A DNA stretch of 37,426 bases from Bacteroidales bacterium (GTDB taxonomy: Bacteria > Bacteroidota > Bacteroidia > Bacteroidales > TTA-H9), in the NCBI GenBank assembly GCA_030656615.1, contig JAUSOY010000051.1, forward strand, positions 1 to 37,426, written 5' to 3'. The notes beneath the pieces were generated by a model. That model searched no databases. It was not told the DNA's origin and saw nothing but the letters and a program-made list of their open reading frames with translations. Of this stretch, positions 4 to 29,163 are shown in pieces. Both the position numbers and the translations under genes were made by a program. The stretch's first letter is position 1; the number at the start of each line of letters is the position of its first letter.

Positions 4-312
4 ATCTTCGCCCTATCAAATTACAAAGTGGCATCGGCATTGATTTCTGCCGGCTTATCGGCCAGCTTAGGCATCATCTGATCCAGCACAGGCTTATTTT
101 GTAACAGTAGAACGTTATCAAGATTCGTTGGCGGTATACGAAACACGTACGTATACCGATAGCTATCGGAACCTGCTACATCAGAACTCTTTTGCATTCA
201 TGTGAAAGGGTTCTTTTTTAAGTCAAAAGTATCAGAAAATTTTGTCGGATTCATATCCGTCAGGCGACGGACATGAGTTCAACTTCTCCCGATAGCTATC
301 GGGAGCCGCTAC
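4..312. repeat. Long direct repeat, copy 1
   Basis: This stretch is repeated with point changes at 1202-1511. It contains three inverted repeats. One is a palindrome reading CCGATAGCTATCGG near 146, seen again near 290. One is a 10-bp stem (183-192 with 205-214, one wobble) followed by six T, which looks like a plus-strand intrinsic terminator. One is a TCCGTC/GACGGA hairpin at 256-271. On the minus strand it holds a 58-codon open frame (197 down to 21), matched by a 61-codon frame in copy 2. I do not recognise that peptide. The copy may extend beyond the left edge of the window. Confidence 0.8.
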
Positions 313-4638: not shown

Positions 4639-6915
4639 TTATTTGCAAACACTTAACTTCTTTGAAACCAATGTCTGATTTGTTGTAGATAATGTCAAAA
4701 GATACACGCCCGGGGCAAATTTCTGCAAGTCTATGCTTTTGTTTCCGGTTTTTCCCGTCAGGCTGAGTTGGTATTTCTCTTGTCCTGCTATGTTGAAGAT
4801 TTTCAGTTGACCCACCTGGCATCCTTCAGGCAGTTGCCACTCAATATTTATGTTATCACTGGCCGGATTTGGAGATACCTCCAGCCTGGCCATGTCAGCA
4901 TTGAGAACCGGCAGGCCAATCGGATAACCATTTCCTAATTTCAGCAACCTCCCATAATCGCCGTAGGCAAATCCATTCTGATCATAAAATATTTTTAATC
5001 CATTAAAAGCAGGGTAGGGGCCGTATTGTACCCAATCGGTGCCGGCATTGTTGGTTTGAAAAATCCATGAAGTATCGTTATTAGCTGCATCATTCACCAA
5101 TACGTAACCTGTCTCATACGACGTAAATCCGAAATCTGCCACCGAAGTTCCCACGCCGGAAAATACCGGACTTACGATGTTTTGGCCATTCACCATTTGT
5201 AATGCATAAATAGTATGGGTCGATTCTTCCAAAACAAATCCAAGACTGTCGTTCAGCATACGGCCTTTTTTGATTTTCTGTAAGCCAAGGTCATTAAAAT
5301 TCCAGGTATTTCCTCCATCGATTGTTTTGTAATACCCTCCGGAAGTGGTACTTCCGCCAAAGAGGAAGCCTGTTTGCGGGTTTATAAACTGCATATTGTT
5401 TAAAGAATCATCCGGAAGATTGAGTTCACTCCATGAATTTCCCATGTTTTCTGAGACAAAGAGTTTTTTATGTACCTGATACGGTTGAAACGTATAATTC
5501 TCGCCAAAGAGATATGCACTGTTCCAGGCCATAAAGTTTAGATCAATGGGCTTTGCCAGACTGTTGTGAACGATTCTTTCCCAGGATACTCCACCATTTT
5601 GGGTTCTGAATATATCTGCAGTTCCTGCATTGCTGTATGAAATTCCTGTGGCAAGCCCTTCGGTTCCGCTGGCAAATGCAATCTTATTGAGGTTTAGCTC
5701 AACGTTTGATGTATTGGGTTCGATGTTTACCGTGTCGAAGCTGTTGCCCCCGTTGGTACTGTGCAGGACGAAAAGCTCGGTACAAAAATTAACCGTGTTG
5801 CCGGTAAAACTACCATCCGTTAAATGACCGCCAAATGCGCCATCGAAAAAATTAAAATTCAATGCATTCTCTGTTTTAATAGGTAGCTCAACACCGGTGG
5901 TATAAGCAACAACTCTCAGTTGGTTGCTGATACCCAGTGCCGTGATTGCAGGATTGTAAATCCACTCATATACGTTTGGAATATTGGCTTTTTCCCAGCT
6001 CTGCCCTCCGTTAAAACTTACAAAGATGGGGGGTATGTGATGCGATTCTTCACCAGCCACTATGCCGTAAGTGTATATTGTCTGCTGATCGTACGCCTTT
6101 ATCCCTTTGAGCGTGTTGCCAATGCCCAAATCGTTAATAGGAAAAGTGCTAAGCCAATTATTTCCGTGGTCGGTCGATTTGTATACAAGTGCTCGCGAAA
6201 TTGAATTTATATCATTGTCAGTGATTAAGAATCCTGAGGTATAATAATAACCCCCGCCAGCATATTCTGCACTTAAGAACCGTATGGAGCCGTTTTGATT
6301 GAAAACCAGTGAAAAAGTTACTCCACCGTTGCTTGTTTTGTAAATGGAAGCATCTTCAGAATTTCGGCGAATAAGAATTCCTTCGTTTTCGTTTTCAAAG
6401 GCAATATCAGAATAGTAGTCAAGATCAGGGAGCGAATCAAGGATGGTGTAGGCCCATGTGATTCCACCATCGGTGGTTCTTCCAACTTCAAAGGTATAAT
6501 TCCCGCTGTTTTTTTTAACCAATGAAAAGCCATTAGAGGCATTCACCATATCAATAGAAATGTATTTTCTGTTTTGTAACTGATGCAATGGCTGCCATGT
6601 GGTTCCATAATTATCGGTTTTCAAAAGTTTATCGTCAGACATAATAATGGCCGAAGAAGTGCTTGTGATGGCAGCTTTAAGAAAGGTATTGTTTGTTCCG
6701 CTTGTAACAGTTATCCAACTTTGTCCCCCGTCGGAAGTAAGGGCAACAGCGCCCATGGTACCCACCATCATGCCTTTATTGGCATTAAAAAACCCAATAT
6801 CATTTACTTTGTATCCAAATGGTTTTGGATTAAGCCATTCGGGCTGTTGTGCAAAACCAAAGCAGGCTGAGCAAATGGCCAGCACTGTTAAAAATATGCC
6901 TGGTAGTGTTTTCAT
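4639..6915 (-). CDS. T9SS-exported BNR/Ycf48-like repeat protein
   Basis: About 758 residues. The first codons upstream (to 6936) begin with TTG, whereas ATG at 6915 starts a clean signal peptide (MKTLPGIFLTVLAICSACFG, cut near AQQ). The body repeats the pattern T-x-DGG-x-x-W (for example TSDGGQSWITV, TTDGGITWAYT, TIDGGNTWNF), typical of BNR / Ycf48-like beta-propellers. The last 80 residues are a Por secretion-system C-terminal sorting domain (LEVSPNPASDNINIEW ... PGVYLLTLST), so it is probably exported by the type IX system and attached to the surface or released. The substrate is unknown. It is a single gene; its promoter is not clear, though CAAACATA at 6997-7004 is a weak -7 candidate on the minus strand. 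Confidence 0.88.
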   Translation of the reverse strand: MKTLPGIFLTVLAICSACFGFAQQPEWLNPKPFGYKVNDIGFFNANKGMMVGTMGAVALTSDGGQSWITVTSGTNNTFLKAAITSTSSAIIMSDDKLLKTDNYGTTWQPLHQLQNRKYISIDMVNASNGFSLVKKNSGNYTFEVGRTTDGGITWAYTILDSLPDLDYYSDIAFENENEGILIRRNSEDASIYKTSNGGVTFSLVFNQNGSIRFLSAEYAGGGYYYTSGFLITDNDINSISRALVYKSTDHGNNWLSTFPINDLGIGNTLKGIKAYDQQTIYTYGIVAGEESHHIPPIFVSFNGGQSWEKANIPNVYEWIYNPAITALGISNQLRVVAYTTGVELPIKTENALNFNFFDGAFGGHLTDGSFTGNTVNFCTELFVLHSTNGGNSFDTVNIEPNTSNVELNLNKIAFASGTEGLATGISYSNAGTADIFRTQNGGVSWERIVHNSLAKPIDLNFMAWNSAYLFGENYTFQPYQVHKKLFVSENMGNSWSELNLPDDSLNNMQFINPQTGFLFGGSTTSGGYYKTIDGGNTWNFNDLGLQKIKKGRMLNDSLGFVLEESTHTIYALQMVNGQNIVSPVFSGVGTSVADFGFTSYETGYVLVNDAANNDTSWIFQTNNAGTDWVQYGPYPAFNGLKIFYDQNGFAYGDYGRLLKLGNGYPIGLPVLNADMARLEVSPNPASDNINIEWQLPEGCQVGQLKIFNIAGQEKYQLSLTGKTGNKSIDLQKFAPGVYLLTLSTTNQTLVSKKLSVCK

Positions 6916-7086
6916 TTTTTTAATTTTCTTCAACAATTACTACTGTACCCAAAGACGCTAGTTGTATAGAATTACCCATGCAATATACAAACAAAACAAA
7001 CATATTGAACGATGGTGAAATTTTTTTGAATTTTTTTTGAATGAAAAAACCACCACTCATTTGCTGCGCTTCCGCTCACTAATCGG

Positions 7087-8701
7087 AGTGTCTTATATTC
7101 CAATTCTTCTTCAAACCACAACTCCGGTTTATGCCGTTAGGGCTTTCAATTTAGTGTCTTATATTCCAATTCTTCTTCAAACCACAACTATTCCTGTGTA
7201 AATAATACCGCTGCATTCAGTGTCTTATATTCCAATTCTTCTTCAAACCACAACTGCATTCATTCATTTGCTCAATTCAAAGAAAGTGTCTTATATTCCA
7301 ATTCTTCTTCAAACCACAACCATCCAAGTTCATGTTATAAATTTCCGTTAGTGTCTTATATTCCAATTCTTCTTCAAACCACAACCTTTCTAATCATATT
7401 CATAAATTTAAAAAAAGTGTCTTATATTCCAATTCTTCTTCAAACCACAACTCTTCAACAGCTTCCAATTTCTCAACCGCCAGTGTCTTATATTCCAATT
7501 CTTCTTCAAACCACAACTAGCACATGCTACAATGACAAACGCATGGAAGTGTCTTATATTCCAATTCTTCTTCAAACCACAACCTTACTTCACTTACTAA
7601 CGTCTAATCCAAAAGTGTCTTATATTCCAATTCTTCTTCAAACCACAACTCAAAATGTACCTGACGGATGATACTGGTGAGTGTCTTATATTCCAATTCT
7701 TCTTCAAACCACAACCATGTTACCGCTGGTAATTCTGTTTGTATCAGTGTCTTATATTCCAATTCTTCTTCAAACCACAACACATTTTGAGTATATGTTA
7801 ATGCCTGAAATAGTGTCTTATATTCCAATTCTTCTTCAAACCACAACTTTCTTTCTATCCATGTATTATGTAAATTAGTGTCTTATATTCCAATTCTTCT
7901 TCAAACCACAACTTACTATTTATACGACACTGTTCATAGCCGAGTGTCTTATATTCCAATTCTTCTTCAAACCACAACCGAAAACCGTGAATGTCTCTGG
8001 ACGAATTAAGTGTCTTATATTCCAATTCTTCTTCAAACCACAACACAAATGAAGGAAATTCTTTCATCATTTTAGTGTCTTATATTCCAATTCTTCTTCA
8101 AACCACAACGGCAGGCAGTTACACCCGGCGCATTAATCTAGTGTCTTATATTCCAATTCTTCTTCAAACCACAACGTTGACACGAAAGATGAATCTTTTT
8201 ACAAAAGTGTCTTATATTCCAATTCTTCTTCAAACCACAACAGAGTAAAGAGAAATATTTTGAAGTCGTTAAGTGTCTTATATTCCAATTCTTCTTCAAA
8301 CCACAACTGTATTTAATATAATATATATATCTAATATAGTGTCTTATATTCCAATTCTTCTTCAAACCACAACACAGCCAGGTATATTCGTAAAAGACTT
8401 TTAGTGTCTTATATTCCAATTCTTCTTCAAACCACAACCAACTTAAACTGTTTTAAGAAGCGTTGGCAGTGTCTTATATTCCAATTCTTCTTCAAACCAC
8501 AACTACCGAGGAAATTGAATTTAATGAAGAAGTAGTGTCTTATATTCCAATTCTTCTTCAAACCACAACCCTCGAAATGTTCGGTATTGTTAAGCCAAAA
8601 GTGTCTTATATTCCAATTCTTCTTCAAACCACAACTCGGTACTCATGCGGCTGAATTTTGGCGTAAGTGTCTTATATTCCAATTCTTCTTCAAACCACAA
8701 C
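7087..8701 (-). CRISPR. Type II-C CRISPR array, 25 repeats and 24 spacers
   Basis: Twenty-five 36-nt repeats, all identical by eye, start at 7087 and then every 65 or 66 bases (19 spacers of 30 nt, five of 29 nt); the last repeat is 8666-8701. In the crRNA direction (minus strand) the repeat begins GTTGTGGTTTGAAGAAG and ends ATAAGACACT, the usual form for type II-C arrays of Bacteroidota. The direction is set by the anti-repeat of the tracrRNA near 15577, which pairs with this strand. It is also the direction of the cas genes, so the leader is on the 8702 side. Several spacers read as open protein-like frames, as expected for phage-derived DNA. I saw no spacer matching elsewhere in the window. 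Confidence 0.99.
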
Positions 8702-9459
8702 CTATTGCCTAAAATGCTATATTTTATTATGGATTCAGCGCTTTTGCCTCAAAAGAAAATCCATGAAAACAGCAGGAAGTGGTATGATCGAGTTGATTTT
8801 TTCAATCCCAGGATGCCAATGAACCTAATTTCAACAAATATAATGCTTTGAAAATAATTTTGAACAATGCATGTAAATATTTCATTCTAACTGTTTCATT
8901 TTTACCGCAGAGAACGCAAAGATGGATTTTAGTTTTCGCTAACCCACTTTCCTATTTTAAATCGCAAATTCAACCGCAGAGAGCCGCAAAGAATTCAGTT
9001 TTAATGCAATGGTCTCTGCGTACCTCTGCGTTTTCTTAGCGTCCTTTGCGGTTAAAGGTCGTTTTTTACCACAGTGAGCCGCAGAGAATTCAGTTTTAAT
9101 TTAATGGCCTCTGCGTACCTCTGCGTCTTCTTAGCGTTCTTTGCGGTTAATGGTCGTTTATTACCTCAGAGAGCCGCAAAGAATTCAGTTTTAATTTAAT
9201 GGCCTCTGCGTCTACTTAGCGTTCTTTGCGGTTAAAGGCCGTTTGTTACCGCAGAGATCCGCAGAGAAATTGTAGTATAATTTGTATTTGTTTCTCTCTT
9301 CATTAATGGTGTATAGAACCGCAGAGAATCGCAGAGAAAAACGAAATTCGGGTATTTGAATTCTCAGCGGTACTTTGCGTTTGCTTTGCGTACTCTGCGT
9401 TCAAAAGAGTTTCAATATCCGCACTATTGGAAATGCCAAGTTTTTAACAAAGATTTTTA
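8702..9459. repeat. Array leader and tandem GCAGAG-type repeats
   Basis: Gene-free stretch between the array and the GxxExxY gene. The first 190 bases are AT-rich leader. From about 8908 to 9405 there are diverged copies of an 85-100 bp unit. The clearest three start near 8971, 9068 and 9162, with partial copies at 8908, 9247 and 9319. Each unit opens with ACCGCAGAGAGCCGCA and closes with CTTAGCGTTCTTTGCGGTTA, so it can fold on itself. Such repeats are widespread between genes in Bacteroidota. Open frames across them are not credible genes. Confidence 0.8.
8835..8867 (-). promoter_or_regulatory. Candidate array leader promoter
   Basis: On the minus strand TATATTTG (8842-8835) fits the Bacteroidota -7 element TAnnTTTG. 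A TTG lies 22 bases upstream (8867-8865), slightly longer than the usual 19-21. Transcription would start near 8828 and enter the array after a leader of about 125 bases. The same -7 octamer occurs upstream of cas9 and of the tracrRNA. Confidence 0.5.
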
Positions 9460-9837
9460 TTATAGTTTATAAACCAATCTTTTTAAACCATCAATTATCC
9501 GAAGGACATTGAAATTCATTAGCAAACCTAATTTGCACCCTGACAGCTTTAAATATGTTAATACCTGGGCTGTGTGAATTTCATTCAAAGCTTCTACCGA
9601 CTTAACTTCAATAATTACTTTGTTTTCGACTATCAAATCAAGCCTATATCCGGCATCCAGTTTAACATCTTTATAAATCAATGGCAGAGCCTTTTGTTTT
9701 TCAACTCTTAAGCCTGCCTCCATCAGTTCATAGTAAAGACATTCTACATATGCATTCTCAAGCAAACCCGGTCCTAAGGATTTATGTACTTCAATTGCCC
9801 GACCTATAATTTTTTCTGAGATTTCGTTCTCGCTCAT
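9460..9837 (-). CDS. GxxExxY family protein (PD-(D/E)XK-like)
   Basis: A 125-residue protein of the GxxExxY family (PDDEXK_3). The naming motif is GLLENAY at 24-30. A nuclease-like core follows: Asp67 in YRLDLIV, then Glu77-Val-Lys79 in IIEVKS, and Gln91 in AQVLTYLKL, which together fit the D...ExK...Q pattern of PD-(D/E)XK enzymes. Nuclease activity has not been seen in the sequence, only the fold signature. It starts 18 bases after the cas2 stop on the same strand, so it is probably co-transcribed with cas9-cas1-cas2 and lies between them and the array. The family is very common in Bacteroidota outside CRISPR loci, so the association could be chance. ATG at 9837 gives the usual family length. 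Confidence 0.88.
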   Translation of the reverse strand: MSENEISEKIIGRAIEVHKSLGPGLLENAYVECLYYELMEAGLRVEKQKALPLIYKDVKLDAGYRLDLIVENKVIIEVKSVEALNEIHTAQVLTYLKLSGCKLGLLMNFNVLRIIDGLKRLVYKL

Positions 9838-10201: not shown

Positions 10202-11101
10202 TTAAATAGTGTGTTTAAAATCCGGATACTGAATTTTTTTAGAGTCGCCTGCGAAACATCTTGCCAAGGAGGCTGAGGTTTGAGATAATGCGACCATCAG
10301 TGGTCTCATATTTTTCCCAATTTCCACATCAGCAGTCAGAATCTCAAGAAGTTTCATTTTTAACTGAGTATTCAGTTCTGAACGACCGCCTTCACTATTC
10401 CAGATTTTATACACTGCTTCATCAACCCATGGCCGATAAGGTTCCATAATATCATCAGCCAGACAGAAAGCATTGTATCGGTTTTTGTGAAAAATGCCCA
10501 GAGTTGAAAGTAAGCCGGAACCTGCCAAAGCCCGGGCAACAGCAGCCCGTAATATGATATACCCATAATTTAATAAAGGATTTGGCGGTTCCCCGTATCG
10601 ATCCCTGACAAATTCTTTTCCAAAGAGTCTGGGCCAGTATAGCCGGGCAGCAACCCCTTCGCGGTTATCTGTATCCCCGCTTTTTACCTCATTGGCGAGA
10701 ATATACAAATCTTTATAATTGAATCCGAGTTTTTTAAGAAATGCTGACTGGTTGGTAATTTTTTGTTCAACCGTTTGTTTCCAAAGTTGTTTTTTGAGAG
10801 GTTCAGAGGCCGCAATTTGTTGAGAAAATAGTTCACCCTGAATGTTGTTGCTATCCAGATTCAGGAGCATAGACGAAGGCATATGCTTTTCATTGCAGAA
10901 TACTACGGCTATGTTATTTTCGTTCAGCGCCGAAAGCAATGGCAAAGTGATGCTTACTTGCATATTCTCCACTACCACAAAACCAATATCCTCAATGGGT
11001 ACCGACCTGAGCTCGGAAGTTTCAGTTAGATTTATTACTAATTGATTGTCTTTTAAATTAAGACGCGAAGGCTTGCTGAAAAAGATGGTGCGTTTGAGCA
11101 T
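10202..11101 (-). CDS. cas1: CRISPR-associated endonuclease Cas1 (type II)
   Basis: A 299-residue Cas1 integrase that, with Cas2, inserts new spacers at the leader end of the array. The N-terminal beta domain is about 1-85. The helical catalytic domain shows the three metal ligands: Glu148 in NREGVAARLYW, His205 in LGIFHKNRYN and Glu220 in ADDIMEPYRPW. These match positions known from type II-A Cas1 of Streptococcus. It starts 53 bases after the cas9 stop and is followed at once by cas2. No cas4 or csn2 gene is present, which makes the locus type II-C. Confidence 0.98.
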   Translation of the reverse strand: MLKRTIFFSKPSRLNLKDNQLVINLTETSELRSVPIEDIGFVVVENMQVSITLPLLSALNENNIAVVFCNEKHMPSSMLLNLDSNNIQGELFSQQIAASEPLKKQLWKQTVEQKITNQSAFLKKLGFNYKDLYILANEVKSGDTDNREGVAARLYWPRLFGKEFVRDRYGEPPNPLLNYGYIILRAAVARALAGSGLLSTLGIFHKNRYNAFCLADDIMEPYRPWVDEAVYKIWNSEGGRSELNTQLKMKLLEILTADVEIGKNMRPLMVALSQTSASLARCFAGDSKKIQYPDFKHTI

Positions 11102-11154: not shown

Positions 11155-14100
11155 CTATAAAAAAACAATCTTACTTGTTGGAGTAATTTTAAAGTCATAG
11201 CCTTCTACAAGACAATCAAATGAATTGACTCCGATTTTAATCCATGGATATTTTTTATGTTCTCCAATATTTTTCCCGCCCTTCATTCCGGTTTTTAAAC
11301 CCATAAATGGTGTGATCTCTTTTTTCTCTCTTGCTTCAATATGGTGTAATAATTTAATTGCGGATTGTTCCACATCCAATTGGGTAATTTGGAAAAGCCT
11401 TTCAAGAATTTTCGAATCTGTCATTTCCTTAAGTTCACTGGGTGAATCGTTGTAAAGTAGCACCATTTTACCTTTTGTTATGATATATTTTAATGGATTT
11501 CCATCGCTATCCTTTTCTGGAGATATCGGATATTGTTTTTTATTTACATTACTCGATTTAAAATAACTGCCAGCATCGAACATATTAATTAAGATGCTTG
11601 ATCGCTTGATTTTTCCGTTATTATCAACCCCTTCATAGATAGCCATGCAATAATTCTCATTATTTTGAGCATAAATCTTCTGTTTATGAAGTTGACGAGA
11701 TATTGAAAGGGCGGGATGGTCTTTAATTATTAATGGATTTTTTACTGAGTTGGCATAAATTCTTACTTTCCGAATTGGGATGCCCTTTTCTTCATTCATC
11801 CAAATTGTGCCAATGAGTTTGTTTTTTTGTTTGGGATTTGATGAAATCATCAATATTTTATCCTTGACACCATTCTGAACTTTGACTTTTACTGCTTCAT
11901 CAACAATATTATCAATATCAGTCGCTTTCAAACTTTCCAAATTCTTTCGGATTACAGTTCTTATCTCGCCATGGTTTGAGGAGGTTTTAATTCTGCCATA
12001 AATACTTTCCTGATGCAAAGAGCCCCTTACTGTATCACCCTGCTGTAGTCTTGGCATTTTCAAACCCAGCTCATCAAGTTTGTATTTGACCTTATTGTTA
12101 CTGTCCTTTATAACAATAGTTTTTCCATTTTCATCTTTTTCTGTTTCAGCCACATACTGTTTTTTACCTCTAATTCTCAGGACTTTTATTGTTTGTTTTC
12201 CTGCATTGTCTGGCGTATGATGCGATACTAAAATTTCATCTTCAAGTCTCTTTAAGTCTTGGGTAAATGTTGGCCATGGTTTTGAGCCTTCAAAAAGCTC
12301 TTTCACCCTTTTATAGTTTTCCTTATCTGGGTCGTCTTCTAAAGTCCATGCATGTGCCAAGATATCATATTTGTCTTTGGTCATACAAGCAATGGTAATG
12401 GCATCTATTGTGTGATGTGTATGTTTGCTCCTATCCTTTATTGCATAATACTTATTGCCATTTTCAACAAACCCTGGCTGCAATCCCCATGCCTTTCTAA
12501 ATTCTGAAACCATTCCTCCTTTTACAGATTCCACTCGTTCAAAGTATGATTTTAAGTAAGCCCTTGCATATTTAGTAATTAAACCAGTATCTGGAATTTG
12601 GCTGTTTTTAAATCCAACTTTAGGTTCTTTCATAATAAAACGTTCATATTTTCCTTTTAAATAATCACGTTTTAATGTAAGGTAATGCCTTCTCCTGATT
12701 TTTTTGTCCTTAGCCTCTTTAGTTGTAGCTTGTGAAGTAGATTTAACAATTCGTTCAATTTCCCATGATAGCTTTTCAGCCTCCTTCAGCCAGTGTTCAA
12801 CTCTGTTTTTAATATCTTCATAATTTGCCAATTCAATCGGCATCTTATTTCTTTTAATTTCTCTATTAAATCGTTGACTACATAAAGTTTTGTTCATTAA
12901 TGAATTGTCCTGAGATATGCTTCTGGGTATTGTATGTTCAATGTCATATTTTGGGTTAGTACCTATTATGTCACAAATACTAATATTGTTGCCGCCTTCA
13001 TAAATGTCTTTTTTGTCTTGTTCAAGCCACAATTGATAGCGAAGAATGTCATCTTCGGTGGGCTCTATTTCTTTTTTGCATTCTCCAAAATACAGATTCT
13101 TTATTTCTTCCCTGTATAGCTCACGATTCTTTTTGTTTTCATTTTGGAAATCCTGAATCCCTTTACGTCTATTAGAATCATTTAATTCACGGGCCAACTC
13201 GATATGAACTCTGGTTTTTGGATCAATTTGACCTTCTTTTATCAATGTATTAAGTACTTTACGTAATTGATGTAAAGCACGCATAGCCATTGGATTTTTA
13301 ATAGAAGAAACCATAGGACTACCCAAAATCATTTGCTCATTACCGTGCTCATCTTTACTTACCTTTACTTTATAAACTTCAATGTCTGAAGGATGATAGA
13401 GTTTTTTGATACAAGATTCGTCACTACAAAAAACTTCACCTGTTTCATTTTTTCCCATTAAGAATTCTAATAGTTTCTCATCCAGTCTTTTAATCGCAAT
13501 AAATTCATGCTTTTTAAGTTGCTCAATAAATCGTGGAAATAACTCATCGACAACTTCTTTTTGTCTGTCCGTTATTTTATAAGTGTTGAAGTATGGTTGT
13601 AATTTTTCAAGTAGTTCTTTTCTGTAGTAATTTTCAGCTTCTACAGAGTAATAATAGTTGTTTATTTTACAGGCTTTGATTAGAGCATTTATTACATCTA
13701 ATCTGTCATTTTCCGCTGTGTAGTTATCTATTATATCAACAACTTTGTTCTGAATTTTCGATCTTTCATATAAGTCACTCCATATGCTTTCATCAACTAT
13801 ATTACAAATATTTGCCATAAAAACAGCATGCGAATACAAAAATCCATTTTTCAAGAAGGGTATGATTTTATTTATCGCATTCAAGCTTAAGCTTGCAAAA
13901 TCTTTTTTCATCCGGATTTTACTAAAAGATTTAGCTCTTTTTTCGTCCAGCCTTAATTTGTCTTTTGCATATTCCTCTAGGTAAAGATCGGATTTAGAAA
14001 CGGAAATCAAATGCCAAATATCTTTGTAGTCAACAATTCTGGTTACTGGCTCTCCTTTTTTATTTTTTGTCTGGTATGTGTATTTTTTAGTATTCCATTC

Positions 14101-15537
14101 CTCACCAAATATATTTTTCAAGGATGATGATACTGGACAACCTATCACGGTATCTTTCCTCTTATAATTGAATATAAATTGCGCAGTATCCTTTGCCGAT
14201 GATTTGTAGTATGCAAATATGCATCCTTTAGGTATTAGCTCATTAGCCAAATCTTCAAAATTGAATTTATCTTTCTTCCGTAAAAACTTGGGAACAAGTT
14301 TTTGTTTTTCCTCAAGTGTTAAAAACCTCAAATAAGTATCCTCTGGTCCTTGAAATTTTATTGTATTAATATATGACCACATCCTGTATTCTTCAAAATC
14401 AGGGTGAGAAATGGAACAACGTGTTTTGCTTTTTTCAAGAGAGCATTTGCCAACTGAACCTTTTTGGGATTTTAATGGTCTTTGGAAAAAAATTGCCCTA
14501 TATAATTCTCTTATTAAGCCATTGTAACGCTTTTCCGGAAGCTTTTCAGCGTAGTTTATACCTTCAATACCCTGGATTTTGCAGATGTGTTCTAATTCAG
14601 CTAAATAGTGATCTTCTCTAGCTGTATAATGATTCCTAATTTTTGCTCGGTTAATTTTTTCTTTTTTCTTAGTGGTTTTGTTTTCTACTTCAATCTCCTT
14701 ATTATAAAGACTATAAAAGTATTGACCAAGTGTTTCATGATTTCCTTCTTCCATTTTCTGAGTAATCTCATGGATTTGTTTTTTTACCTCTCCCAAATCC
14801 TCTTTTCTATTAAGTCTGGCAATAATTTTACTCTTCAACTCATCAATATCCGGCATGTTTTCCTTGAAAATCTTTTCAAAAGCTTTATAAAGAGTTAGAA
14901 TCTTTTTTTCACCTTCATCTAAATCGTTGGATTTTTTCTCAAATATGTCTAAACCATCAAAATATTCTTTAACGTCAATCATCATTTCATCAATTGTATC
15001 TGATTCATTAATGATATCTTCCAAATTCGGTATATGTTTTTCAATTATTCCATCTGCCGATTGATCTAAACGATTACTCAAGAATCCTCTTCTCTGTGCT
15101 ATATGGTATAATGCTCGCCCTAATTCAAAAAGTTGTACTTTTTGTTTGCTGGCTTTATCTCTCAAATGATAGGGAGTAATATTTAAAACATCATCCGTGC
15201 GTAACCAACTAATAAACTCCGGATTTAAAGGATACTTTTGAAAACCGGATTTTCTCCACTCTTCAACTTCAATAACTGATAGTGGACACATTTTGTGTTT
15301 AACCAGTACCATAAGTGTTTCATACTTTCGAAGTTTTCTTCTAAACTTGATTCTCCTTGCACTTCTATAACTTGTTCTTTCAGATGCTCTTGAACTCTCG
15401 ACCCCATTTTCGTTTTTTACACCTTCTGAAAATATTCTGACACCTTGGTCCATGAGTGAAAATGCACCATCATACATTTCTACCACAGCCCATCCAATGC
15501 TGTTGGTTCCCAAATCAAGTCCTAAAATTTTTGTCAT
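11155..15537 (-). CDS. cas9: CRISPR-associated endonuclease Cas9 (type II-C)
   Basis: A 1460-residue Cas9 that cuts DNA matched by a crRNA:tracrRNA guide. RuvC-I starts the protein (KILGLDLGTNSIGW, Asp8). The arginine-rich bridge helix is 50-75 (SARRIKFRRKLRKY). A long recognition lobe runs to about 745. RuvC-II holds Glu780 (HIELARELN). HNH holds His868 (YDIEHTIPRS), Asn882 and Asn891, spaced +14 and +23 as in SpCas9. RuvC-III holds His1042 and Asp1045 (HHTIDAITIA). The rest is the WED/PAM-interacting region. Both nuclease sites therefore look active. Start: ATG at 15537 begins directly at the RuvC-I strand; the frame stays open to 15606, but those 23 extra codons lie on the tracrRNA anti-repeat and are not protein. 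PAM cannot be read from here. Confidence 0.98.
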   Translation of the reverse strand: MTKILGLDLGTNSIGWAVVEMYDGAFSLMDQGVRIFSEGVKNENGVESSRASERTSYRSARRIKFRRKLRKYETLMVLVKHKMCPLSVIEVEEWRKSGFQKYPLNPEFISWLRTDDVLNITPYHLRDKASKQKVQLFELGRALYHIAQRRGFLSNRLDQSADGIIEKHIPNLEDIINESDTIDEMMIDVKEYFDGLDIFEKKSNDLDEGEKKILTLYKAFEKIFKENMPDIDELKSKIIARLNRKEDLGEVKKQIHEITQKMEEGNHETLGQYFYSLYNKEIEVENKTTKKKEKINRAKIRNHYTAREDHYLAELEHICKIQGIEGINYAEKLPEKRYNGLIRELYRAIFFQRPLKSQKGSVGKCSLEKSKTRCSISHPDFEEYRMWSYINTIKFQGPEDTYLRFLTLEEKQKLVPKFLRKKDKFNFEDLANELIPKGCIFAYYKSSAKDTAQFIFNYKRKDTVIGCPVSSSLKNIFGEEWNTKKYTYQTKNKKGEPVTRIVDYKDIWHLISVSKSDLYLEEYAKDKLRLDEKRAKSFSKIRMKKDFASLSLNAINKIIPFLKNGFLYSHAVFMANICNIVDESIWSDLYERSKIQNKVVDIIDNYTAENDRLDVINALIKACKINNYYYSVEAENYYRKELLEKLQPYFNTYKITDRQKEVVDELFPRFIEQLKKHEFIAIKRLDEKLLEFLMGKNETGEVFCSDESCIKKLYHPSDIEVYKVKVSKDEHGNEQMILGSPMVSSIKNPMAMRALHQLRKVLNTLIKEGQIDPKTRVHIELARELNDSNRRKGIQDFQNENKKNRELYREEIKNLYFGECKKEIEPTEDDILRYQLWLEQDKKDIYEGGNNISICDIIGTNPKYDIEHTIPRSISQDNSLMNKTLCSQRFNREIKRNKMPIELANYEDIKNRVEHWLKEAEKLSWEIERIVKSTSQATTKEAKDKKIRRRHYLTLKRDYLKGKYERFIMKEPKVGFKNSQIPDTGLITKYARAYLKSYFERVESVKGGMVSEFRKAWGLQPGFVENGNKYYAIKDRSKHTHHTIDAITIACMTKDKYDILAHAWTLEDDPDKENYKRVKELFEGSKPWPTFTQDLKRLEDEILVSHHTPDNAGKQTIKVLRIRGKKQYVAETEKDENGKTIVIKDSNNKVKYKLDELGLKMPRLQQGDTVRGSLHQESIYGRIKTSSNHGEIRTVIRKNLESLKATDIDNIVDEAVKVKVQNGVKDKILMISSNPKQKNKLIGTIWMNEEKGIPIRKVRIYANSVKNPLIIKDHPALSISRQLHKQKIYAQNNENYCMAIYEGVDNNGKIKRSSILINMFDAGSYFKSSNVNKKQYPISPEKDSDGNPLKYIITKGKMVLLYNDSPSELKEMTDSKILERLFQITQLDVEQSAIKLLHHIEAREKKEITPFMGLKTGMKGGKNIGEHKKYPWIKIGVNSFDCLVEGYDFKITPTSKIVFL

Positions 15538-15541
15538 CGTA

Positions 15542-15571
15542 TTGCTTTTTGAATTTTTAATCGTATATTTG
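15542..15571 (+). promoter_or_regulatory. Predicted tracrRNA promoter
   Basis: TTG at 15542-15544, a 19-base spacer, then TATATTTG at 15564-15571 match the Bacteroidota -33 / -7 promoter pattern. The start point would be near 15577, just before the anti-repeat. The promoter lies between the cas9 start codon and the tracrRNA, pointing away from cas9. Confidence 0.7.
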
Positions 15572-15576
15572 TCTCT

Positions 15577-15667
15577 TAAGATTAATTTCCAATTCGATCT
15601 TATCACAATAAGGCTATATGCCGAAGGAATTTATTCCTATACTCTCGCTTCGGTGGGAGTTTTTTTT
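15577..15667 (+). ncRNA. tracrRNA
   Basis: Predicted trans-activating CRISPR RNA of about 90 nt. The anti-repeat pairs with the crRNA repeat in two blocks: 15602-15609 with repeat bases 1-8 (TATCACAAT, two wobbles) and 15587-15595 with repeat bases 17-25 (TTCCAATTC, perfect), leaving the usual internal bulge. Next comes AAGG and a small nexus hairpin GGC/GCC (15612-15622), then a second hairpin AGGAA/UUCCU (15625-15638). The end is a terminator, an 8-bp stem with a UUCG tetraloop (15641-15660), followed by a T-run to 15667. CACAATAAGGC resembles the same position in the Neisseria tracrRNA. It is antisense to the cas9 leader. The exact 5' end is inferred. Confidence 0.9.
15641..15667 (+). terminator. 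tracrRNA intrinsic terminator
   Basis: Stem 15641-15648 with 15653-15660 (two G-U wobbles) closed by a C(UUCG)G tetraloop, then eight T. The opposite strand has no T-run after the stem, so a cas9 transcript entering from the right should read through. Confidence 0.88.
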
Positions 15668-15696
15668 ATGCTACTAATTGATTTAAACTTATCATA

Positions 15697-15726
15697 CAAA
15701 TATAAATAAGAAGTTAATTACTGCAA
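15697..15726 (-). promoter_or_regulatory. Predicted cas9 operon promoter
   Basis: On the minus strand, TTG (15726-15724), a 19-base spacer and TATATTTG (15704-15697) fit the Bacteroidota pattern exactly as the tracrRNA promoter does. Transcription would start near 15690, giving a cas9 leader of about 150 bases that runs antisense through the whole tracrRNA. Confidence 0.6.
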
Positions 15727-28194: not shown

Positions 28195-29163
28195 CTATTG
28201 CATTCCATATTCGGTTGACTGTTCAATAATTTCTTTGAAACGAGCAGGATCGAGGTCAAACATAAAATAAACCGGATTTACCTTACGGTTATTCCAAACA
28301 ACCTCATAATGCAGATGAGGACCGGAGGTTAGTCCGGTATTTCCAACAGTGCCTATATAATCACCACGTTTTACTTTTTGCCCGGGTCTAACATTGAAGC
28401 CATTCAGATGGGCGTATATGGTTTGGTACCCAAATCCGTGGTCAATAATTATTTTTTTCCCAAAACCATCGCGGATAATATAAGCTACATCTGATACGAC
28501 TCCATCGCCGGTAGCATAAACTTTCGTGCCGATAGGAGATGTATAATCGATGCCCTCATGAAAAATCCTTCGCTTATAGATGGGGTGGATTCTGAAACCG
28601 AAATACGATGAAATATATTTGATATCCCGGTCGTTCACAGGTTGTATGGCAGGAATACTTAACATCATTAGCTCCTTGCTTTTGGCAAGTTTAAAAACGT
28701 CGTCATATGACTTAGACTGAACGTATAACTGGCTGGCTAATTGATCAATTTTTTTGGTTGTTTCAATGACGATTTCCGAATTATTAAAACCTTCAAGTTT
28801 CGAATATCGATCGGCACCGCCTATACCCGCTTTTCGTACATCAGATGGAATGGGTTCGGCTTCAAAAATAATGCGGTAAATATTATCATCACGATTTTGA
28901 AGGTCGGAAGTTACCTTTTGTAGTTGTTCCAGACGATCGTTGAGAATGCTAAACTGAAGCTTGTATTGATCGATTTCTCTATCCAGTACACGTTCTTTCG
29001 GGGAAGAGAAAAAATTATACGCAATTAGTAATACCACAGCGGCAAATACACTTCCCGTTGCCGTTGTCCACAACAATGGTTTTAATTTATCGCGCCAATG
29101 GGTGTGAATAATTTCATACGTCAGGGAAATAGGATCAAAATGATATTTGGTTTTTTTGGCCAT
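28195..29163 (-). CDS. M23 peptidase with membrane anchor and coiled coil
   Basis: A 322-residue protein. One membrane segment (about 34-52, ATGSVFAAVVLLIAYNFF) is followed by a coiled coil (60-95) and a second helical part (130-165). The LytM / M23 domain (about 185-300) has zinc ligands in HEGIDYTSPIG and GPHLHYEV, with the intermediate His in YQTIYAHLNG. It resembles the MepM / NlpD type of inner-membrane anchored endopeptidases or division activators in Bacteroidota. It is divergent from alaS, with 120 bases between the two starts. Confidence 0.93.
   Translation of the reverse strand: MAKKTKYHFDPISLTYEIIHTHWRDKLKPLLWTTATGSVFAAVVLLIAYNFFSSPKERVLDREIDQYKLQFSILNDRLEQLQKVTSDLQNRDDNIYRIIFEAEPIPSDVRKAGIGGADRYSKLEGFNNSEIVIETTKKIDQLASQLYVQSKSYDDVFKLAKSKELMMLSIPAIQPVNDRDIKYISSYFGFRIHPIYKRRIFHEGIDYTSPIGTKVYATGDGVVSDVAYIIRDGFGKKIIIDHGFGYQTIYAHLNGFNVRPGQKVKRGDYIGTVGNTGLTSGPHLHYEVVWNNRKVNPVYFMFDLDPARFKEIIEQSTEYGMQ

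What the first reader, a model, noticed from the sequence alone, without database searches (positions are those of the whole stretch)
15577..15667. tracrRNA gene antisense to the cas9 leader
The sequence shows an anti-repeat with two paired blocks to the CRISPR repeat (8 and 9 bp), nexus, second hairpin and a UUCG-loop terminator with eight T, with its own TTG-N19-TATATTTG promoter. It sits on the strand opposite to cas9, immediately upstream of its start. Standard gene annotation would leave this as a gap or as part of cas9. The anti-repeat also fixes the direction of the array.
Basis: partly seen in the sequence, partly recalled or inferred. Interest (0 to 1): 0.75.

Follow-up and report, generated by a model that had tools for sequence, protein, structure and literature searches.

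The report
tracrRNA nested opposite the cas9 leader
This is the small helper RNA that a bacterial CRISPR-Cas9 immune system needs to load its guides; it is an ordinary member of a known family, but here the cas9 message is predicted to start beyond it and run through it on the other strand, which could let the two control each other.

Summary
15578-15667(+) reads as a type II-C tracrRNA: anti-repeat with 8- and 9-bp blocks, nexus, second hairpin, UUCG-loop terminator, TTG-N19-TATATTTG promoter. Repeat complementarity alone is not decisive (third-best site in the window). Relatives decide it: 44 of 46 loci with related Cas9 carry the same RNA, divergent from cas9; L028's contig ends too soon and L039 has none. 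Six of 20 distinct repeat/anti-repeat pairs, the window's included, prefer each other both ways, and all 15 modelled pairs show two-sided changes. The model finds one copy in the genome. As a tracrRNA it is ordinary.

Less ordinary is the word "antisense". Cas9 starts at ATG 15537. The only strict -7 box on the cas9 strand within 350 nt of the tracrRNA core, part of TTG-N19-TATATTTG at 15726-15697, lies beyond the tracrRNA terminator, so a leader of about 153 nt should be antisense to the whole tracrRNA. Among 108 loci such a distal promoter occurs in 9 of 30 with a short cas9-tracrRNA gap and 0 of 78 others. Antisense overlap is likely here, a regulatory effect possible; neither is shown, for lack of transcript data.

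The parts
15542..15571 (+). predicted tracrRNA promoter TTG-N19-TATATTTG (Bacteroidota-type -33/-7)
   Evidence: a strict TAnnTTTG box lies 8 to 55 nt before the core in 83 of 120 loci, against 7 of 120 on the other strand of the same stretch
15578..15667 (+). tracrRNA gene; 5' end inferred, about 7 nt after the -7 box
15587..15609 (+). anti-repeat (9-bp block TTCCAATTC 15587-15595, 8-bp block ATCACAAT 15602-15609)
15612..15622 (+). nexus hairpin GGC-TATAT-GCC
15625..15638 (+). second hairpin
15641..15667 (+). intrinsic terminator: 8-bp stem, TTCG loop, run of eight T (the first T also closes the stem)
15697..15726 (-). predicted cas9 promoter TTG-N19-TATATTTG, beyond the tracrRNA terminator
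15538..15690 (-). predicted cas9 5' leader (about 153 nt) antisense to the whole tracrRNA; start site inferred
11155..15537 (-). cas9 (1460 aa), ATG at 15537
10202..11101 (-). cas1 (type II)
   Evidence: TIGR03639
9856..10194 (-). cas2
   Evidence: TIGR01573
7087..8701 (-). CRISPR array, 25 repeats of 36 nt, crRNA strand is minus

Best explanation
A type II-C tracrRNA gene. Its anti-repeat pairs with each repeat of the minus-strand pre-crRNA, the duplex is bound by Cas9 and probably trimmed by RNase III, and the nexus and hairpins hold it in Cas9. It is transcribed away from cas9 from its own promoter. cas9 is most likely transcribed from a promoter beyond the tracrRNA terminator, so its leader is the exact antisense of the tracrRNA and the two transcription units face and overlap each other. 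Shown here: sequence parts, conservation, co-variation, single copy, promoter motifs and their distribution across loci. Inferred: transcription of either RNA, RNase III processing, Cas9 binding, and any effect of the overlap. The confidence given is for the tracrRNA identity; for the antisense leader I hold about 0.75.
For: 44 of 46 loci with related Cas9 carry the RNA divergent from cas9. The window's repeat binds its own tracrRNA best among 20 distinct loci and the reverse (-24.4 against -13.6 to -21.9 kcal/mol with the other 19 tracrRNAs); 6 of 20 loci rank first both ways. 15 of 15 modelled pairs have two-sided changes, 98.2% of cells paired, 0 of 500 shuffles as good. One model hit in the genome. 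TTG-N19-TAnnTTTG has 3 matches in the 37-kb window, two of them flanking this RNA face to face; TTG-N19-TATATTTG has 12 distinct sequences in the 3.56-Mb genome, two of them here. Distal cas9-strand promoter in 9 of 30 short-gap loci, 0 of 78 others, 0 of 30 short-gap loci on the opposite strand; 200 shuffles of the short-gap regions gave mean 0.3, largest 3.
Against: No transcript data. Anti-repeat complementarity alone is not the best in the window. The window's upper stem (9 bp) is shorter than the continuous 14 to 16 bp of most of the 30 relatives compared. 14 of 20 distinct loci do not rank first on at least one side of the partner test. L039 has no tracrRNA in the stretch held, though its cas9 match lacks the first 215 residues. 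21 of 30 short-gap loci show no strict distal cas9 promoter. The gap cut-off of 82 and the scanned stretch were chosen after seeing the data; the cut-off-free test gives p = 5.7e-5, and loci are not fully independent. With a weight matrix instead of the strict motif the best cas9-strand site lies beyond the tracrRNA in 22 of 30 short-gap but also 37 of 71 long-gap loci, a much weaker contrast. The motif's window-wide count alone is not above chance (3 against 1.29 expected, 11 of 100 shuffles as many).
Confidence: 0.95

Rival explanations
1. tracrRNA with a regulatory second role: the antisense leader of cas9 pairs with the tracrRNA over about 90 bp, competes with pre-crRNA and is cut by RNase III, or the two polymerases collide, so that Cas9 and tracrRNA levels restrain each other.
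For: Predicted face-to-face promoters of the same motif and spacing; perfect duplex of -156.7 kcal/mol against -21.3 for repeat and tracrRNA; distal promoter recurs in 9 of 30 short-gap loci.
Against: No expression data; the paired stretch ends 40 nt before the start codon, so a direct block of translation is unlikely; 78 of 108 loci keep a longer gap and none of these shows the strict distal promoter.
Confidence: 0.3
2. The cas9 promoter lies in the 40 nt between ATG and tracrRNA, or overlaps the tracrRNA, with a box that departs from the consensus; the two genes are simply divergent and the distal motif is unused.
For: 0 of 78 long-gap loci have the strict distal motif and presumably start cas9 in the gap; two short-gap loci have a full cas9-strand motif near the 5' part of the tracrRNA (L139, L144).
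Against: No TAnnTTTG on the cas9 strand in the window's gap; the tracrRNA promoter already fills it (15542-15571); the distal motif has the highest weight-matrix score of the 101 loci scored.
Confidence: 0.22
3. A long tracrRNA form guides Cas9 to the cas promoter, as in some type II-A systems.
For: tracrRNA and cas9 are divergent and closely spaced; nothing else.
Against: Only about 40 nt lie between the cas9 start and the tracrRNA, and no word of 14 to 16 nt from 15536-15600 recurs elsewhere in the window; the longest found, 13 nt, is a T-rich word at 7023. One tracrRNA-strand -7 box was seen upstream.
Confidence: 0.02
4. Chance complementarity in AT-rich DNA, no RNA gene.
For: Energy of pairing alone ranks third in the window.
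Against: Conservation, co-variation and promoter position across the related loci.
Confidence: 0.01

Closest known systems
tracrRNA of Flavobacterium type II-C systems (Fp2Cas9 of F. psychrophilum: PMC10309648, PMC12609912; F. columnare: PMC8092290; passages read)
   Same: Type II-C; cas9 lies between tracrRNA and cas1; TAnnTTTG and TTG promoter elements are discussed there too; a 99-nt tracrRNA and a crRNA guide Fp2Cas9 cleavage in vitro. The F. columnare and F. covae loci fetched here (L033, L037) have tracrRNAs of this family and repeats that share the first 12 letters with the window's.
   Different: Window repeat and anti-repeat have a different upper stem; the window gap is short and its predicted cas9 promoter is beyond the tracrRNA. 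In F. psychrophilum CN46 a cas9 promoter is predicted in an IS982 gene inserted between tracrRNA and cas9. The F. columnare tracrRNA is called putative and not validated in PMC8092290.
Riemerella anatipestifer type II-C anti-repeat upstream of cas9 (PMC5006608, passages read)
   Same: Anti-repeat ending in TTCACAA upstream of cas9, like several loci here.
   Different: Only a 16-nt anti-repeat is given in the passages read, with no tracrRNA promoter or cas9 leader.
Type II-A tracr-L control of the cas promoter (PMC11417352, passages read)
   Same: tracrRNA used to lower cas expression; compares only with the regulatory rival here.
   Different: There Cas9 with a long tracrRNA binds promoter DNA; here a leader-tracrRNA duplex or polymerase collision is proposed, without long form.

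Membership tests
tracrRNA (type II) | anti-repeat complementary to the cognate CRISPR repeat | tested here: met
   8- and 9-bp blocks; best partner among 20 loci both ways; energy alone only third in the window
tracrRNA (type II) | nexus, further hairpins and terminator 3' of the anti-repeat | tested here: met
tracrRNA (type II) | encoded near cas9 and the array | tested here: met
tracrRNA (type II) | match to a curated RNA family model (supporting, not defining) | tested here: not met
   no Rfam 15 family at its gathering score; one permissive hit, an unrelated snoRNA, E 4.3. That tracrRNAs are too diverse for one model is my inference.
tracrRNA (type II) | transcribed as a small RNA and needed for crRNA maturation and Cas9 cleavage | not testable with these tools
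   no expression data, no bench
type II-C CRISPR-Cas | cas9, cas1, cas2 and array, without csn2 or cas4 | tested here: met
   cas9, cas1, cas2 called by NCBIfam and Pfam; the only listed ORF of at least 80 aa between cas2 and the array is a GxxExxY protein, and the two ORFs after the tracrRNA are carbamate kinase and ornithine carbamoyltransferase; ORFs elsewhere in the genome were not scanned
type II-C CRISPR-Cas | promoter in each repeat | tested here: inconclusive
   repeat holds TTG at positions 2-4, as argued for F. columnare (PMC8092290), but no TAnnTTTG box; read by eye
tracr-L type autoregulation | 5' extension matching the cas promoter | tested here: not met
   (exact words of 11 to 16 nt, within the window only)

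The most novel reading that the evidence does not exclude
In a short-gap class of Bacteroidota type II-C loci the cas9 leader is the perfect antisense of the tracrRNA. The leader acts as a decoy repeat: it pairs with tracrRNA, both are cut by RNase III, and the cell thereby ties Cas9 output to free tracrRNA, a form of control unlike tracr-L.
Probability: 0.2. Interest if true: 0.6.

Novelty: new member of a known kind. Interest (0 to 1): 0.35.

Why it matters
The tracrRNA completes the annotation of a type II-C system whose Cas9 is at most 66% identical (best segment) to the relatives found, and gives a candidate guide scaffold. The layout matters more: if cas9 is read through its tracrRNA gene on the other strand, such systems have a built-in way to couple Cas9 and tracrRNA levels, and a simple 5'-end map would settle it. 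One passage I read (PMC10309648) says that the transcription mechanism of tracrRNA in F. psychrophilum was not revealed there.

Tried and rejected
Rejected: chance complementarity; a better anti-repeat near + 12991 (opposite cas9 coding sequence, no core seen); a long guide-like form; cas9 start at GTG 15606, since homologues begin at the equivalent of ATG 15537.

Led nowhere: protospacers in the phage collection (3 records, none a convincing spacer match, so no PAM was tested); sigma-70 scan (4 promoter-like sites against 3.3 expected); Rfam; weight-matrix scan of cas9-strand promoters (in 71 long-gap loci the best site was beyond the tracrRNA in 37, in the gap in 28 and over the tracrRNA in 6, so no clear position; the window's own tracrRNA promoter was mis-scored there because the stored stretch began too close to it).

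Rows dropped: of 46 loci, L028 (contig ends 186 nt before cas9) and L039 (cas9 match begins at residue 216) gave no core; the model found no tracrRNA in either, only weak matches opposite their arrays (best E 0.041). The core pattern itself was used to pick the 44, so its identity in the alignment is partly by selection. Of 83 loci scanned, L089 (the window itself), L077 (same contig as L132) and L133 (cut off) were dropped; five duplicates were removed; four loci without a core were first lost and one core (L115) was misplaced, all corrected, which gives 120 loci, 108 with a cas9 start. The cas9 start was recognised by a short N-terminal motif in the second set (69 of 83 loci, every one divergent; 14 had none).

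Literature: the listings showed me no paper on a cas9 leader antisense to tracrRNA; these listings are capped, the library lacks most subscription papers, and PMC3737331 was not held. RNase III processing, ribosome footprint and general type II-C statements not tied to a call or paper are recalled.

Full report
What is there. On the minus strand lie cas9 (11155-15537, 1460 aa), cas1, cas2 and a GxxExxY protein, then a 25-repeat array at 7087-8701. The cas9 reading frame runs on to a GTG at 15606, but homologues begin with M-(x)-(K/R)-I-L-G-L-D-L-G-T-N-S-I-G-W or close variants, which puts the start at ATG 15537. On the plus strand, 15578-15667 encodes a candidate tracrRNA with promoter and terminator.

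Is it a tracrRNA. Pairing with the repeat has an 8-bp and a 9-bp block. Scanning 45-nt pieces (step 3, both strands) outside the array gave two sites with better energy (-27.6 and -24.5 against -24.4 kcal/mol), so complementarity alone would not prove it; the best of these lies opposite cas9 coding sequence and shows no core, the other was not inspected. The proof is comparative. Of 46 loci with Cas9 relatives at 43 to 66% best-segment identity, 44 have the same RNA, divergent from cas9. They were picked by the pattern ACAATAAGGC; the alignment is invariant beyond it, over CACAATAAGGCTATATG in all 45 sequences including the window. The two misses are L028, whose contig ends 186 nt before cas9, and L039, whose cas9 match lacks the first 215 residues and in which the model finds no tracrRNA.

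Co-variation. Thirty-one loci had both a repeat (at least 2 copies) and a tracrRNA, 20 of them distinct. The window's repeat and anti-repeat each rank the other first, and so do L022, L036, L038, L043 and L051, the last two with quite different repeats. The other 14 fall below first place on at least one side; most share the consensus stem, and the worst are L012 (16th and 15th), L015 (14th and 1st) and L044 (7th and 13th). A covariance model of the 45 sequences found the RNA in 53 of 393 genomes drawn from the order and 27 of 395 drawn from the phylum, the window's genome counted in both, with one hit in the window's own genome. On 82 distinct sequences of that search all 15 modelled pairs show two-sided changes and 98.2% of cells pair, with 0 of 500 shuffles as good; this alignment was fitted to the model, which favours the structure, though sliding the partners by 1 to 3 columns dropped pairing to 42-53%. 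Rfam has no family that reports it.

How common is the layout. In 69 of 83 loci of the second set a cas9 start was recognised, each time on the strand opposite to the tracrRNA and upstream of it. A strict TAnnTTTG box sits 8 to 55 nt before the core on the tracrRNA strand in 83 of 120 loci, against 7 of 120 on the other strand. A divergent tracrRNA beside cas9 is thus the normal arrangement in these loci and not a surprise.

Where does cas9 start. In the window 40 nt separate the ATG from the tracrRNA, and the tracrRNA promoter fills most of them. No TAnnTTTG lies on the cas9 strand there. The next one upstream, within TTG-N19-TATATTTG at 15726-15697, lies beyond the tracrRNA terminator. The form TTG-N19-TAnnTTTG occurs 3 times in the 37-kb window (1.29 expected; 11 of 100 shuffles as many), and two of the three face each other around this RNA; the third is 41 nt before an ORF at 28195-29163. 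The N20 form has no match, 1.04 expected. In the whole genome TTG-N19-TATATTTG has 24 matches against 8 for the reversed control, 12 distinct sequences, one of them present 13 times; 7 of the 12 have an ORF of at least 60 aa beginning within 140 nt downstream without lying in an ORF of 150 aa or more; cas9 is among them through its GTG frame start, its ATG being about 160 nt downstream.

Across 108 loci with a placed cas9 start, a full promoter of this kind (spacing 18 to 21) beyond the tracrRNA on the cas9 strand occurs in 9 of 30 with a gap up to 82 nt and 0 of 78 with a larger gap (Fisher 3.7e-6; cut-off chosen after looking). Other cut-offs from 60 to 120, on the 106 loci placed before correction, gave p from 0.05 to 2e-5; the rank test without cut-off gives 5.7e-5. 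On the opposite strand the counts are 0 of 30 and 4 of 78. Shuffled short-gap regions gave a mean of 0.3 and at most 3 in 200 rounds. Against this, the looser weight matrix puts the best site beyond the tracrRNA in 22 of 30 short-gap and 37 of 71 long-gap loci, and 21 of 30 short-gap loci lack the strict motif. Of the nine, seven (the window and six others) belong to seven numbered families of the order search, and two are L013 and L040, so one shared recent origin is unlikely; I built no tree.

Mechanism. The established part, by membership, is guide loading and cleavage as for Fp2Cas9, where a tracrRNA and crRNA were shown to direct cleavage in vitro (PMC12609912, passages). The proposed part is that the cas9 leader (about 153 nt) contains the whole tracrRNA in antisense. 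A duplex of the two is far more stable (-156.7 kcal/mol) than tracrRNA with repeat (-21.3 for 15578-15667). It ends 40 nt before the start codon, so I expect effects through RNase III, sequestration or polymerase collision and not a direct block of ribosomes. None of this is shown.

Verdict. A new member of a known kind. The interest is in the testable overlap, not in the RNA itself.

Noticed in passing
L046, core at 5784 on the minus strand (first copy's core at 5877): Flavobacterium granuli has a second, altered tracrRNA copy directly after the first, with a GC-rich changed nexus.
   Followed up: no
L132 1501-1592 and 2844-2935: One genome of the order carries two full tracrRNA copies 1.34 kb apart.
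   Followed up: no
gap between tracrRNA promoter and cas9 in L011, L022, L025, L030, L033, L055: These loci carry a dyad of the kind TACGG-N-CCGTA whose arms seem to vary together, seen by eye; possibly an operator of cas9.
   Followed up: no
window 9460-9837 and 8973-9257: A GxxExxY (PD-(D/E)XK-like) gene and three 95-nt tandem repeats lie between cas2 and the array.
   Followed up: no
window 4-303 and 1203-1502: A 300-nt direct repeat, 90% identical, 1199 bases apart.
   Followed up: no
L162, L163 and eleven more places in the genome: TTGTAATTCAAATATATATAGCTATATTTG occurs 13 times, many at contig ends, so it probably marks a repeated element.
   Followed up: no
MT838156.1, 5516-5623: The end of a 5.6-kb record labelled Bacteriophage sp. 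matches the array query in several pieces, probably CRISPR repeats.
   Followed up: no
L012 and L030: Contigs labelled Woesearchaeota and Limnohabitans carry cas9 and tracrRNA like those of Flavobacterium; wrong binning is my guess.
   Followed up: no
L039: A locus with a 47-repeat array and a cas9 match lacking the first 215 residues, in which the model finds no tracrRNA; possibly a decayed system.
   Followed up: partly
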